Of a DNA stretch of 64,000 nucleotides, positions 11,721-64,000 are shown in pieces (position 1 is the first letter of the stretch; every line of letters begins with the position of its first letter). Position numbers and translations under genes: made by a program. Below the pieces are notes generated by a model. That model searched no databases and was not told the origin of the DNA. It saw nothing but the letters and a program-made list of their open reading frames with translations. Origin of the DNA: Hanstruepera ponticola (GTDB taxonomy: Bacteria > Bacteroidota > Bacteroidia > Flavobacteriales > Flavobacteriaceae); the NCBI RefSeq assembly GCF_012931685.1, contig NZ_JABANC010000001.1:744001-808000 (forward strand), written 5' to 3'.

Positions 11721-12158
11721 TTAAATATTTTTAATATTCATAATAAGATTACTTAAATCGTTAATACTATTCTTCAATTTCTCAATATCTCCTTTAGTTG
11801 CATGTAAAGAACTTGGATTAAATAGTTTCTTTAATCCATAAATAGTTGCATCGGCTGTTGCAGAACCTATTGCTGCATTACCTATTTCAGCAGCATTTAT
11901 AGTAGGTTTTAAGCTTTCTTGAAAAGCAGCTAATTTATCCTCTAATGATTGTATTTGTGATGACACGTTATCAGGTATCATTAATTGTCCGTTTTCTTCA
12001 ACTTCAACATCTTGTTTCTTGTAGTGACCTGATATATACTTGTAGTTATTTCTTTTATAACTTGCTTTTGTTTTACAACTTGGTGAGCAATACACATGAT
12101 TACTTCTTCGAGACTCAAATGTCTCATAACAATGTTTACAATTTCTTATTTTTTTCAT
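11721..12158 (-). CDS. zinc-ribbon protein of the mobile element
   Basis: A 145-residue protein of unknown function. Seen: an N-terminal zinc-binding motif CxxC-x13-CxxxC at C7, C10, C24 and C28, of the FCS/MYM-like kind (YCSPSC), then a basic linker, and a C-terminal half with a coiled-coil-like stretch near residues 69-83, an Ala/Gly-rich middle (~90-105) and a final helix rich in Ile/Leu/Asn. Similar short zinc-finger proteins are common among Bacteroidota integrated elements, so I take it as an element gene. It is separated by 54 bp from the ATPase gene upstream and by 105 bp from the defence-like operon downstream. Confidence 0.55.
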   Translation of the reverse strand: MKKIRNCKHCYETFESRRSNHVYCSPSCKTKASYKRNNYKYISGHYKKQDVEVEENGQLMIPDNVSSQIQSLEDKLAAFQESLKPTINAAEIGNAAIGSATADATIYGLKKLFNPSSLHATKGDIEKLKNSINDLSNLIMNIKNI

Positions 12159-12212
12159 GGTTTAGTGGTAGATTTGGTAATTAATACGTTAAATAAGGTT
12201 TAATTTAACCTT

Positions 12213-61587: not shown

Positions 61588-62196
61588 ATGGCTTTTGAAT
61601 TACCAAAATTAAAATATGCATATGATGCTCTTGAGCCTCACATTGATGCTCGCACAATGGAAATACATCACTCAAAGCACCATAACGGTTATACTACAAA
61701 ATTAAATGCTGCTATTGAGGGAACTGATTTAGAAGGAAAAACAATTGATAATATCCTTATTAATTTAGACATGGATAACATGGCAGTAAGAAACAATGGT
61801 GGTGGATTTTACAACCATTCATTATTTTGGGAAGTTATGAATCCTAATGACAAAGGTTATCTTTCAGGAGATTTGAAAGATGCTATTGAAGCTGAATTTG
61901 GATCAAAAGATGCTTTTGTTGATGCATTTAGTAAAGCTGCAGCCACACAATTTGGATCTGGTTGGGCTTGGCTTTGTGTTCATAAAGGTGGTAAAGTTGA
62001 CGTCTGCTCAACGCCAAATCAAGACAATCCATTAATGCCTGGCGTAGGCTGTGGAGGTACACCAATTTTAGGTCTAGATGTTTGGGAGCACGCTTATTAC
62101 CTAAATTATCAAAATAGAAGGCCTGATTATATTGATGCTTTTTTCAAAGTGATTAATTGGAATGAGGTTGAAAGAAGATATGCTGAAGCAAAATAA
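61588..62196 (+). CDS. superoxide dismutase, Fe/Mn type (probably Mn)
   Basis: A 202-residue cytosolic enzyme that dismutates superoxide. Seen: metal ligands H27 (MEIHHSKHH), His in FYNHSLFW (~residue 77), Asp in LDVWEHAYY and its His. The [11 protein letters not shown] sequence and NQDNPLMPG point to the manganese form, judging by the usual residue differences; metal use is an inference. Length is normal. Divergent from the AddA-like gene. Confidence 0.93.
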
Positions 62197-62216
62197 TTAG
62201 TAAAGAATTACTATGT

Positions 62217-62240
62217 AAAGCGGACCTATTGGGTTCGCTT
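62217..62240 (+). terminator. terminator after the superoxide dismutase gene
   Basis: AAGCGGACC and GGTTCGCTT pair around TATT (one G-T pair), followed by seven T on the plus strand, 21 bp after the stop. Confidence 0.8.
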
Positions 62241-62306
62241 TTTTTATTTATATGGTAAATAGATTTTCTACTCATTAATTTTCCGCTTTGGTTGGAATTG
62301 GAAATG

Positions 62307-62377
62307 AAAAAAGGTGAACAGAAGTTCACCTTTTTTGCCCCAAATCTACCATAAACTTAACCTACTTATGTTATGGT
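62307..62377 (-). ncRNA. candidate ~71-nt small RNA, copy 1
   Basis: On the minus strand a TATATTTG -7 box (62389-62382) is followed at the correct distance by a conserved block starting ACCATAAC and ending AGATTTGGGGC, and then by an intrinsic terminator (AAGGTGAAC/GTTCACCTT, U-run). The block can fold as ACCAT/ATGGT with an inner AAC/GTT. The second copy (62504-62576) has the same parts in the same spacing. No open reading frame is present. It may belong to a known Rfam family such as Flavo-1; I cannot test that here. Confidence 0.5.
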
Positions 62378-62381
62378 GAAG

Positions 62382-62389
62382 CAAATATA
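62382..62389 (-). promoter_or_regulatory. -7 box TATATTTG of small-RNA copy 1
   Basis: TATATTTG on the minus strand, exact to consensus, five bases upstream of the ACCATAAC start of the conserved block. Confidence 0.5.
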
Positions 62390-62503
62390 ACATTGCTTAT
62401 TCCTAAACTTAAAAATTATTAGATAAACGACTTATAAATTAGGCTAAAATAAACTAAATGAGAAATTTAGTTATTGAATGATTGTTTAAAATCGGAGAAA
62501 AAT

Positions 62504-62576
62504 AAAAAAAGCCGAACCTAAGTTCAGCTTTTTTTGCCCCAAATCTACCATGAACTTAACCTACTTATGTTATGGT
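62504..62576 (-). ncRNA. candidate ~73-nt small RNA, copy 2
   Basis: Same block as copy 1 (one base differs: GTTC versus GTTT before ATGGT), with its own terminator stem AAGCUGAAC/GUUCGGCUU. In this copy one stem pair is U-G on the minus strand but would be C-A on the plus strand, so the stem is intact only for a minus-strand RNA. The -7-like TACATTAG (62588-62581) sits at the same offset as in copy 1. It lies between the purF-like gene's 3' end and copy 1. Confidence 0.5.
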
Positions 62577-62580
62577 GGTA

Positions 62581-62588
62581 CTAATGTA
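62581..62588 (-). promoter_or_regulatory. -7-like box TACATTAG of small-RNA copy 2
   Basis: At the same offset as TATATTTG in copy 1; two of the six consensus bases differ in quality (TAnnTTaG), so it may be weaker. Confidence 0.35.
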
Positions 62589-62685
62589 ATTTTTATTTAT
62601 TTAGAATTTGATATAAAATAGATGAAATGCATTTATTTTAGCTAAAACGCACATTTTTTCAGATAAAATGCACATTTTCAATATT

Positions 62686-64000
62686 TTAATAGGCTCTCTC
62701 CTTATTGCCTTCATAAAAATTAATGAAGGCTCTATTCACAACACGATTTCCACCAACGGTTGGATAATTTCCGGTAAAATACCAGTCGCCTAAATTTTTT
62801 GGACATGCATTGTGCAAATTCTCTATTGATTGGAATATAGTTTCAACTTGAGCATTCACGTTTTCATCAGAAATTAGTTCAGCTATTTTATTTGAAATTT
62901 CATCGGCTGTAAATTCAGCATATAAATCTTTAACAAAATTACGAACTTCTTTATCTTCTAAATTTACTTGTGCTTTACATTTATCATAAACCTCCTGAAC
63001 CAAATGATATTTGTTATGCTCTTCGAGTAATTCAAGCATAGCTCTAAACGCAATAAGATCCTCCAATCGTGCCATATCAATACCGTAACAATCAGGATAA
63101 CGTATTTGAGGAGCAGAAGAAACTACAACAATCTTTTTTGGATGCAAGCGATCCATCATTTTAATAATACTTTTCTTGAGCGTTGTTCCTCTAACAATAC
63201 TGTCGTCAATAATTACAAGGTTGTCAGTGGGTTTAATCACACCATAAGTTACATCATAAACGTGTGCAACTAAATCATCACGGCTACTATCTTCAGTTAT
63301 GAATGTTCGTAGTTTGACATCCTTAATGGCTATTTTTTCAATTCGGGGTCTTTCAGAAAGAATATCAGTAACTGTCTCTGCGGATAGACCACCTTTACCA
63401 TCGAGGATTGCCTGCGTTTTCTTTTGATTTAAATGTTCTTCAACGGTTTCAATCATACCAAAAAAAGATGTCTCAGCTGTGTTAGGTATGTATGAAAACA
63501 CAGTGTTTTTAGTATCATTATTGATAGATTCCAAAACCTTTGGCATTAGTAATTTGCCTAATTCCTTGCGTTCTTGATATATTTCAGCATCACTACCTCG
63601 TGAAAAATAAATACGTTCAAAGGAACAAGCCTTTCGCTCTAAAGGCTCTATGATTTTTTTTATAGAAACTTCGCCAGATTTTTTGGTTATAATCGCATGA
63701 CCAGGATCTAGTTCTTTGACATCATCAAAATCAACGTTAAAAACGGTTTGAATTACAGGTCGTTCAGAAGCTACTACTACTACCTCTTCATCTTTGTAAT
63801 AATAGGCAGGTCTAATTCCTGCAGGATCACGTAAAACGAAAGAATCGCCATGACCTAACAAACCAGCCATAGCATAACCACCATCCCAGTTTTTAGAAGC
63901 CTTTTTCAATATTTTGGCTACATTTAGTCTTTCGGCAATTAATGGTGAACACTCACTTTTACTATAGCCTTCTTTTTTTAATTTTTTATAAATTTTAGAA
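62686..64000 (-). CDS. amidophosphoribosyltransferase-like protein, 3' part only
   Basis: The C-terminal ~437 residues of a class-II-type glutamine PRPP amidotransferase that makes phosphoribosylamine, the first step of purine synthesis; the start lies beyond the right edge and the frame is open to the edge. Seen: GYAMAGLLGHGDSFVLRDPAGIRPA from the glutamine amidotransferase domain, the PRPP-binding VIIDDSIVRGTTLKKSII loop (~residues 220-240 of this part), SSAPQIRYPDCYGIDM, and a C-terminal extension. The active-site Cys would be outside. An internal TTG at 63909 is not the start. Often a second, Bacteroidota-specific amidotransferase relative of PurF; the pathway call is confident, the exact paralogue is not. 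Confidence 0.85.
   Translation of the reverse strand, partial: SKIYKKLKKEGYSKSECSPLIAERLNVAKILKKASKNWDGGYAMAGLLGHGDSFVLRDPAGIRPAYYYKDEEVVVVASERPVIQTVFNVDFDDVKELDPGHAIITKKSGEVSIKKIIEPLERKACSFERIYFSRGSDAEIYQERKELGKLLMPKVLESINNDTKNTVFSYIPNTAETSFFGMIETVEEHLNQKKTQAILDGKGGLSAETVTDILSERPRIEKIAIKDVKLRTFITEDSSRDDLVAHVYDVTYGVIKPTDNLVIIDDSIVRGTTLKKSIIKMMDRLHPKKIVVVSSAPQIRYPDCYGIDMARLEDLIAFRAMLELLEEHNKYHLVQEVYDKCKAQVNLEDKEVRNFVKDLYAEFTADEISNKIAELISDENVNAQVETIFQSIENLHNACPKNLGDWYFTGNYPTVGGNRVVNRAFINFYEGNKERAY

What the first reader, a model, noticed from the sequence alone, without database searches (positions are those of the whole stretch)
62305..62590. Two tandem copies of a putative small RNA between sod and the purF-like gene
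A ~48-bp block is repeated ~200 bp apart. Each copy has a -7-like box at the same offset upstream and its own terminator downstream, all on the minus strand. The terminator stems differ in sequence but both fold; in copy 2 one pair is G-U on the minus strand but C-A on the other, which singles out the minus strand. Conservation of the block between different stems suggests that the block, not the terminator, is under selection. No protein can be read from it.
Basis: partly seen in the sequence, partly recalled or inferred. Interest (0 to 1): 0.7.

Follow-up and report, generated by a model that had tools for sequence, protein, structure and literature searches.

The report
Tandem small RNAs of Flavobacteriaceae
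Two tandem copies of a small RNA of about 72 nucleotides lie between purF and sod; nearly the same RNA is found across the bacterial family Flavobacteriaceae, and it is complementary to the start regions of messages for a surface lipoprotein and two tiny proteins, so it probably holds down their translation.

Summary
Each copy (62307-62377, 62504-62576, minus strand) has a TAnnTTTG-type box 4 nt before its 5' end, a 41-nt core with a hairpin, and its own terminator. The own genome has four copies. A core model matches 241 of 299 Flavobacteriaceae genomes, with no convincing match outside the family; most loci lie between purF and sod. In 252 distinct copies the terminator stems hold 87 G-U and 0 A-C cells, which fixes the strand. 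No Rfam family matches.

Weak model hits proved to be leaders of genes on the other strand. Leaders of 23 CAP-lipoprotein genes pair with the core better than with any of 150 shuffled cores; four from genomes without the RNA do not. A 41-42-aa protein and a 40-aa protein have similar leaders, but were found by complementarity. Best reading: a multicopy trans-acting antisense RNA covering start codons, like FopS in design but not in sequence, in genomes without Hfq (0 of 7).

The parts
62307..62377 (-). Copy 1 of the small RNA (downstream copy), about 71 nt: 5' end at 62377 (inferred), core, terminator arms 62324-62336 and 62307-62319
   Evidence: Sequence; fold z -3.8
62504..62576 (-). Copy 2 of the small RNA (upstream copy), about 73 nt: 5' end at 62576 (inferred), core, terminator arms 62522-62535 and 62504-62517
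   Evidence: Sequence; fold z -3.5
62382..62389 (-). Promoter box TATATTTG of copy 1
   Evidence: position profile of 315 copies
62581..62588 (-). Promoter box TACATTAG of copy 2
   Evidence: position profile of 315 copies
62417..62449 (-). Two half-sites upstream of copy 1 (TTTATCTAATA and TTTTAGCCTAATT), about 21 bp apart; binding protein unknown
   Evidence: Positional enrichment in 361 upstream regions
62616..62668 (-). Three half-site-like repeats upstream of copy 2 at about 21-bp pitch (TTTCATCTATT, TTTTAGCTAAA, TTTTATCTGAA)
   Evidence: Direct repeat D4; upstream sequence and positional enrichment; the third repeat was read by eye
12167..12177 (-). Candidate target site in the window: CCAAATCTACC, an exact 11-nt complement of the core, 8 nt before the ATG of the ORF at 11721-12158
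   Evidence: single case, could be chance (11-mer matches overall not in excess)

Best explanation
The two copies are genes of a multicopy, trans-acting antisense small RNA of about 72 nt that is widespread in Flavobacteriaceae. Each copy is transcribed from its own TAnnTTTG promoter, probably with help of a regulator binding half-sites near -69 and -49, and ends at its own intrinsic terminator. The core offers two pairing blocks: the hairpin loop AUAAGUAGGUUAAG and the stretch UGGUAGAUUUGGGG after it. Target mRNAs have short leaders of the form CCAAAUCUA-n-ACCUACUU-AUG that pair with both blocks across or just before the start codon. The RNA most likely blocks ribosome loading and so lowers translation of a CAP-domain lipoprotein, a 41-42-aa protein with several sites, a 40-aa protein and, in this genome, at least two secreted proteins. 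Supported by comparative sequence: RNA strand, promoter box, terminator, conservation, complementarity of the CAP leaders. Inferred: expression, pairing in the cell, repression rather than activation, the upstream regulator, and the other targets.
For: Model of the core matches 241 of 299 family genomes, 194 of 236 genera. Strand: 87 G-U against 0 A-C cells in 252 distinct copies. Promoter box at a fixed place in 315 copies; half-site starts 97 of 361 at -49 and 34 of 361 at -69, shuffled control mean 0.7. CAP leaders: 26 loci in genomes with the RNA and 4 in genomes without it from one PF00188 search, leaders read; for 23 of the 26 (3 nominating loci left out) the real core gives an energy difference of -10.75 kcal/mol against 150 other start regions, 150 shuffled cores -3.45 (sd 1.12), none as low; z-scores of 21 leaders with the RNA against 4 without, p = 1.6e-4. 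41-42-aa protein leaders in 14 genomes and 40-aa protein leaders in 4 genera, both found by complementarity.
Against: No expression or pairing data. Genome sample: 377 start regions show little excess of strong duplexes over a reversed core, and 11-mer complements are not in excess (15, two of them the arrays themselves, against 13.4 for shuffles). The leader pattern is only about twofold above its reversed control in 30 genomes with the RNA (42 against 22; nested matches counted twice). Several CAP leaders are weak (G072 z -0.4, G063a -1.0, G005 0.1, -1.6 and -0.6). Leaders of related genomes are not independent. Energies ignore folding within each RNA. Covariation between RNA and target is not clear.
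Confidence: 0.76

Rival explanations
1. A small RNA that works mainly by binding a protein (a decoy, like CsrB or 6S RNA); its core is conserved for protein contact, and the complementary leaders are incidental or pair only secondarily.
For: The core is almost invariant over its whole length, more than many pairing RNAs need; multiple copies raise dose; no broad excess of complementary starts in the genome sample.
Against: CAP leaders are complementary, not similar, to the core, and only in genomes with the RNA among those examined. No RRM_1 protein in the own genome and no Hfq in 7 genomes, though an unknown protein remains possible.
Confidence: 0.15
2. The leaders act in the other direction: the 41-42-aa protein message with several sites is chiefly a sponge that soaks up the RNA, and the RNA regulates another, unseen set of messages.
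For: Two or more sites in the leader and first codons of that message (three in the own genome, -26, -30 and -43 kcal/mol); site-plus-terminator 3' ends in two genus genomes.
Against: CAP and 40-aa protein leaders have one joint site at the start codon, the usual place for repression. The message encodes a conserved protein.
Confidence: 0.06
3. Not an independent RNA: a repeated element, or a 3' UTR of purF with terminators, duplicated without function of the block.
For: Several copies per genome, some away from purF and sod; in 166 of 193 locus entries a purF match lies upstream on the same strand.
Against: Each copy has its own promoter box and terminator, the core is kept while flanks change, and solo copies elsewhere keep the same layout. 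No match in viral contigs, phages or plasmids at the sensitivity used.
Confidence: 0.03

Closest known systems
FopS sRNA family (with GibS), Bacteroides thetaiotaomicron (PMC11697453; abstract and passages seen)
   Same: Multicopy paralogous sRNAs of about 65-70 nt in Bacteroidota, each with a promoter; pair with translation start regions; the paper reports repression.
   Different: No significant sequence similarity of the cores (1817 of 5000 shuffles score as high). FopS is bound by the RRM protein RbpB; no RRM_1 protein in the own genome. FopS targets SusC-type transporters; no common complementary leader seen in the 30 own SusC/TonB-receptor-like loci read.
Rfp18 and the other Rfp RNAs of Flavobacterium psychrophilum (PMC9723704; abstract and passages seen)
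   Same: sRNAs of the same bacterial family; some Rfp RNAs are conserved in other species.
   Different: Rfp18 is described with a third stem-loop as pairing region and metalloprotease targets; ours has two stem-loops and other predicted targets. The Rfp sequences are in supplements that were not open, so identity with one of them cannot be excluded.
Rfam families Flavo-1 and 6S-Flavo (names recalled)
   Same: RNAs of flavobacteria.
   Different: No match at the gathering score in the window; neither is among the 28 sub-threshold matches in 62150-62750.
LhrC (Listeria), Qrr (Vibrio) multicopy sRNAs (named in PMC11697453; details recalled)
   Same: Several near-identical copies of a base-pairing sRNA in one genome.
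   Different: Unrelated hosts; no sequence comparison made; Qrr and others use Hfq (recalled), which was not found here.

Membership tests
Trans-acting base-pairing sRNA (general kind) | Own promoter | tested here: met
   TAnnTTTG-type box at fixed distance in a profile of 315 copies; by sequence only
Trans-acting base-pairing sRNA (general kind) | Own intrinsic terminator | tested here: met
   250 of 252 distinct copies have a stem of at least 5 pairs before the U-run
Trans-acting base-pairing sRNA (general kind) | Complementarity to unlinked mRNAs, beyond chance and conserved | tested here: met
   CAP leaders, 23 loci, 0 of 150 shuffled cores as good; some loci weak
Trans-acting base-pairing sRNA (general kind) | Expressed as a short transcript | not testable with these tools
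   No RNA data
Trans-acting base-pairing sRNA (general kind) | Changes target expression through pairing | not testable with these tools
   Needs mutants
Hfq-dependent sRNA | Hfq in the genome | tested here: not met
   PF17209: 0 of 7 genomes at E 0.001; found in 5 of 14 control genomes
FopS/GibS | R1/R1' seed sequence | tested here: not met
   Best local alignment with the published R1' consensus reached by 1817 of 5000 shuffles
FopS/GibS | Binding by RRM protein RbpB | tested here: not met
   RRM_1 (PF00076): 0 in the own genome; found in 2 of 14 control genomes, one a Bacteroides. Other genomes not tested
FopS/GibS | Targets are SusC-type transporter start regions | tested here: inconclusive
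   30 own SusC/TonB-receptor-like loci read by eye, no common site; one possible site in L224
FopS/GibS | Multicopy, about 65-75 nt | tested here: met
   Four copies in the own genome; up to seven in one family genome
Any Rfam 15 family, including Flavo-1 | Gathering score reached | tested here: not met
   Only a tRNA in the window
Rfp18 (F. psychrophilum) | Sequence identity or homology | not testable with these tools
   Sequence only in supplements that were not open

The most novel reading that the evidence does not exclude
A family-wide RNA regulon without Hfq, and in this genome without an RRM protein: one almost unchanging small RNA, kept in tandem between purF and sod across Flavobacteriaceae, matched by messages whose short leaders are near-complete complements of its core. 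One of them, encoding a 41-42-aa protein and holding several sites, may serve as sponge or feedback arm as well as target.
Probability: 0.35. Interest if true: 0.82.

Novelty: new member of a known kind. Interest (0 to 1): 0.68.

Why it matters
Flavobacteriaceae are important degraders of organic matter in sea and fresh water (general knowledge), and few of their small RNAs have a tested function in the papers I saw. A small RNA this conserved, at a fixed place, with a recognisable promoter and concrete predicted targets, makes RNA-based control in the family directly testable. It could be annotated in most family genomes, since Rfam 15 has no model that matches it. The two tiny target proteins would be new genes to study.

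Tried and rejected
SusC-type targets as in FopS: no common complementary leader in the 30 own loci read by eye. Global scan of 377 start regions in 464 kb of the own genome: 198 below -16 kcal/mol for the real core, 181 for the reversed core, 75-171 for five shuffled cores, so no clear excess; 11-mer scan no excess. Homology to FopS: not significant. Covariation of RNA and target: Flavobacterium copies read ATTAGTAGG and three CAP leaders there have the matching CTACTAA (gain about 3.6 kcal/mol), but the four 40-aa protein leaders from genera with ATAAGTAGG prefer the Flavobacterium form too, and G131 goes the other way; I do not claim it. The two weak matches outside the family (G855, G621) show no promoter box or terminator and look like chance. 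Spread by phage or plasmid: no match. Literature: six searches of the open library; nothing in their listings or in the passages I read describes this RNA. Papers opened, abstract and/or passages only: PMC9723704, PMC11697453, PMC5395568, PMC9331221 (one passage). Subscription papers and supplements were not open.

Full report
WHAT IS THERE. On the minus strand, between a purF-like gene (62686 to the window end, minus) and sod (61588-62196, plus), two RNA-like units follow each other at 199-bp pitch. Copy 2 (62504-62576) is upstream in transcription, copy 1 (62307-62377) downstream. Each has a TAnnTTTG-type box exactly 4 nt before ACC, a 41-nt core, 6-7 A, a stem and a U-run. Both fold better than all 200 shuffles.

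OWN GENOME AND GENUS. The core occurs four times in the own genome: twice here, once on contig C2 and once on C9, with different terminator stems. A core pattern matches 5 of 5 genus genomes. Contigs of two genus genomes have the lengths of contigs of Hanstruepera flava NBU2984 and of an unnamed bin, so the window probably belongs to the genus of H. flava (inference).

DISTRIBUTION. A covariance model of the core (R1, from the four own copies) matches 241 of 299 Flavobacteriaceae genomes, 194 of 236 genera. Of 39 family genomes searched again with laxer filters, 27 match and 12 do not; those 12 had no match before either. In an order-wide sample 32 of 246 match, all 32 in the family. In a class-wide sample 12 of 395 match: 10 in the family and 2 weak ones (E 0.0009 and 0.0024) without promoter box or terminator. 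Both wide searches used stricter filters that lose weak matches. No match in viral contigs, phages or plasmids.

CONSERVATION AND PLACE. Of 358 core occurrences in the loci then held (overlapping loci not removed), 228 had no mismatch in the two scored blocks and 63 had one. Of 193 locus-strand entries (also overlapping, flanks limited), 145 have purF upstream on the same strand and convergent sod downstream, 21 purF only, 13 sod and recB-like only, 14 neither. Deduplicated loci with 400 nt on both sides hold 1 copy (55), 2 (77), 3 (15), 4 (1) or 5 (4), median pitch 216.5; G005 has six matches and G227 seven. In two-copy arrays the upstream copy has C at the variable position in 64 of 68 and the downstream copy T in 57 of 68, which suggests two old lineages.

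RNA EVIDENCE. Of 252 distinct copies, 250 have a stem of at least 5 pairs beyond outer A-U pairs, with 114 different stems. With G-U and A-C scored alike, the stems hold 87 G-U and no A-C cells, so the array strand is the RNA. The first 32 nt fold below -2 kcal/mol in 251 of 252; some changed 5' arms re-pair in a shifted register (ACCTGAAC and ACCAGAAC forms, by inspection).

PROMOTER. The profile of 315 copies shows T and A at -11/-10 (0.90 each) and TT at -7/-6 (0.98, 0.91), with no conserved TTTG near -33. The F. psychrophilum sigma-A consensus is TAnnTTTG at -12 to -5 (passage of PMC9723704). Half-sites TTTnnYCWAAA (one mismatch allowed) start at -49 in 97 and at -69 in 34 of 361 upstream regions; shuffled control 0.7 per position on average, at most 3. 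An activator is inferred; its identity is unknown.

HOW THE TARGETS CAME OUT. Several of the weakest R1 matches are not RNA genes. Read on the other strand they are leaders ending at a start codon, for example TTGCCCCACATCTACTTTAAACTTAATTTACTAACATT-ATG before a CAP-domain lipoprotein gene in a Flavobacterium-type genome. A PF00188 search in 32 genomes (24 with the RNA, 8 without) gave 30 loci: 26 in 22 genomes with the RNA and 4 in 3 genomes without it. Many leaders in genomes with the RNA share CCAAATC(TA)-n-ACCTACTT-ATG or parts of it. The own CAP gene has CCCAAATCTAAATAACCTAACA-ATG, with a further ACCTACTT in codons 3-6. In G005, G036 and G060, which have another RNA subtype, two CCTACTT sites stand in place of the joint site, but the duplex energy is not exceptional (z 0.1, -1.9, -1.8). 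The four leaders of genomes without the RNA show no comparable site.

STATISTICS. For 23 CAP start regions (26 less the 3 nominating loci of G407 and G412) the real core gives a mean energy 10.75 kcal/mol below that of 150 other start regions of the own genome; 150 dinucleotide-shuffled cores give 3.45 (sd 1.12), none as low. Leaders of one genus are related, so these are not 23 independent cases. z-scores against shuffled leaders: 21 with the RNA against 4 without, Mann-Whitney p = 1.6e-4; the two G005 paralogues left out there score -1.6 and -0.6. Energies are RNAduplex values without folding inside either RNA.

OTHER TARGETS. A 41-42-aa protein ending KK(L/V/I)FML has two or more sites in its leader and first codons; such leaders were seen in 14 genomes including the own one (in G179 recognised from its coding sequence only). 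A 40-aa signal-peptide-like protein (MKNxKR...SK) has AAATCTA-n-CCTACT-n-ATGA in four genera. In the own genome an LRR protein with a secretion tail and a large secreted protein have such starts, -37 and -29 kcal/mol. All of these were found by complementarity, so their energies only describe them. The pattern search behind some of them gave 42 matches against 22 for the reversed control in 30 genomes with the RNA (nested matches counted twice), and 9 against 11 in 12 genomes without it, two of these 12 judged by stricter filters only.

MECHANISM. The most economical reading is a trans-acting antisense RNA that covers the start codon. The loop block pairs with ACCUACUUAU(G), the 3' block with CCAAAUCUA, and the middle of the core bulges out when the leader is short (duplexes). 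No Hfq was found in 7 genomes and no RRM_1 protein in the own genome, so it needs no such chaperone or uses an unknown one. Near-invariance of the core fits pairing over most of its length with several messages, but would also fit a protein contact. Repression is inferred from geometry.

COMPARISON. In design it is closest to FopS of Bacteroides (abstract and passages of PMC11697453), but core sequence, partner protein and targets differ as far as tested. Identity with one of the Rfp RNAs of F. psychrophilum (abstract and passages of PMC9723704) cannot be excluded. I rate it as a new family of a known kind.

Noticed in passing
L361:1419-1541 (own contig C6 near 597222); also L329, L328, L336, L274, L350, L349, L355, L356: A 41-42-aa protein ending KK(L/V/I)FML with no Pfam match (two members scanned) and several core-complementary sites in its leader and first codons.
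   Followed up: partly
L378:675-794, L379:733-852, L380:1282-1401, L353:1385-1504: A 40-aa signal-peptide-like protein (MKNxKR...SK) in four genera, with a core-complementary leader; no Pfam match for the one scanned.
   Followed up: partly
L390 and L391, minus strand near 1382-1402 (G004:C2 and G001:C2): Downstream of a gene ending in a secretion-tail-like sequence, a core-complementary stretch directly before a terminator in two genus genomes; possible sponge, weak score (R1 E about 0.3-0.4).
   Followed up: partly
L001 (own contig C2:22634) and L004 (own contig C9:73208): Solo copies away from purF and sod with differing upstream regions; their own regulation may differ.
   Followed up: partly
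L334 (G044:C1:3210343): A core-complementary stretch about 60 nt before the start of gldL (GldL_N, Pfam) in one genome; R1 E 0.075, may be chance.
   Followed up: no
window 11721-12158 (minus): 145-aa protein without a Pfam family above its cut-off; its leader has an exact 11-nt complement of the core 8 nt before the ATG and gave the strongest duplex of 377 start regions scanned.
   Followed up: partly
G006, G014, G027, G029, G037, G051, G068, G008, G123, G135, G178, G185: Family genomes in which the RNA was not found even with laxer filters; whether it was lost or replaced there was not examined.
   Followed up: no
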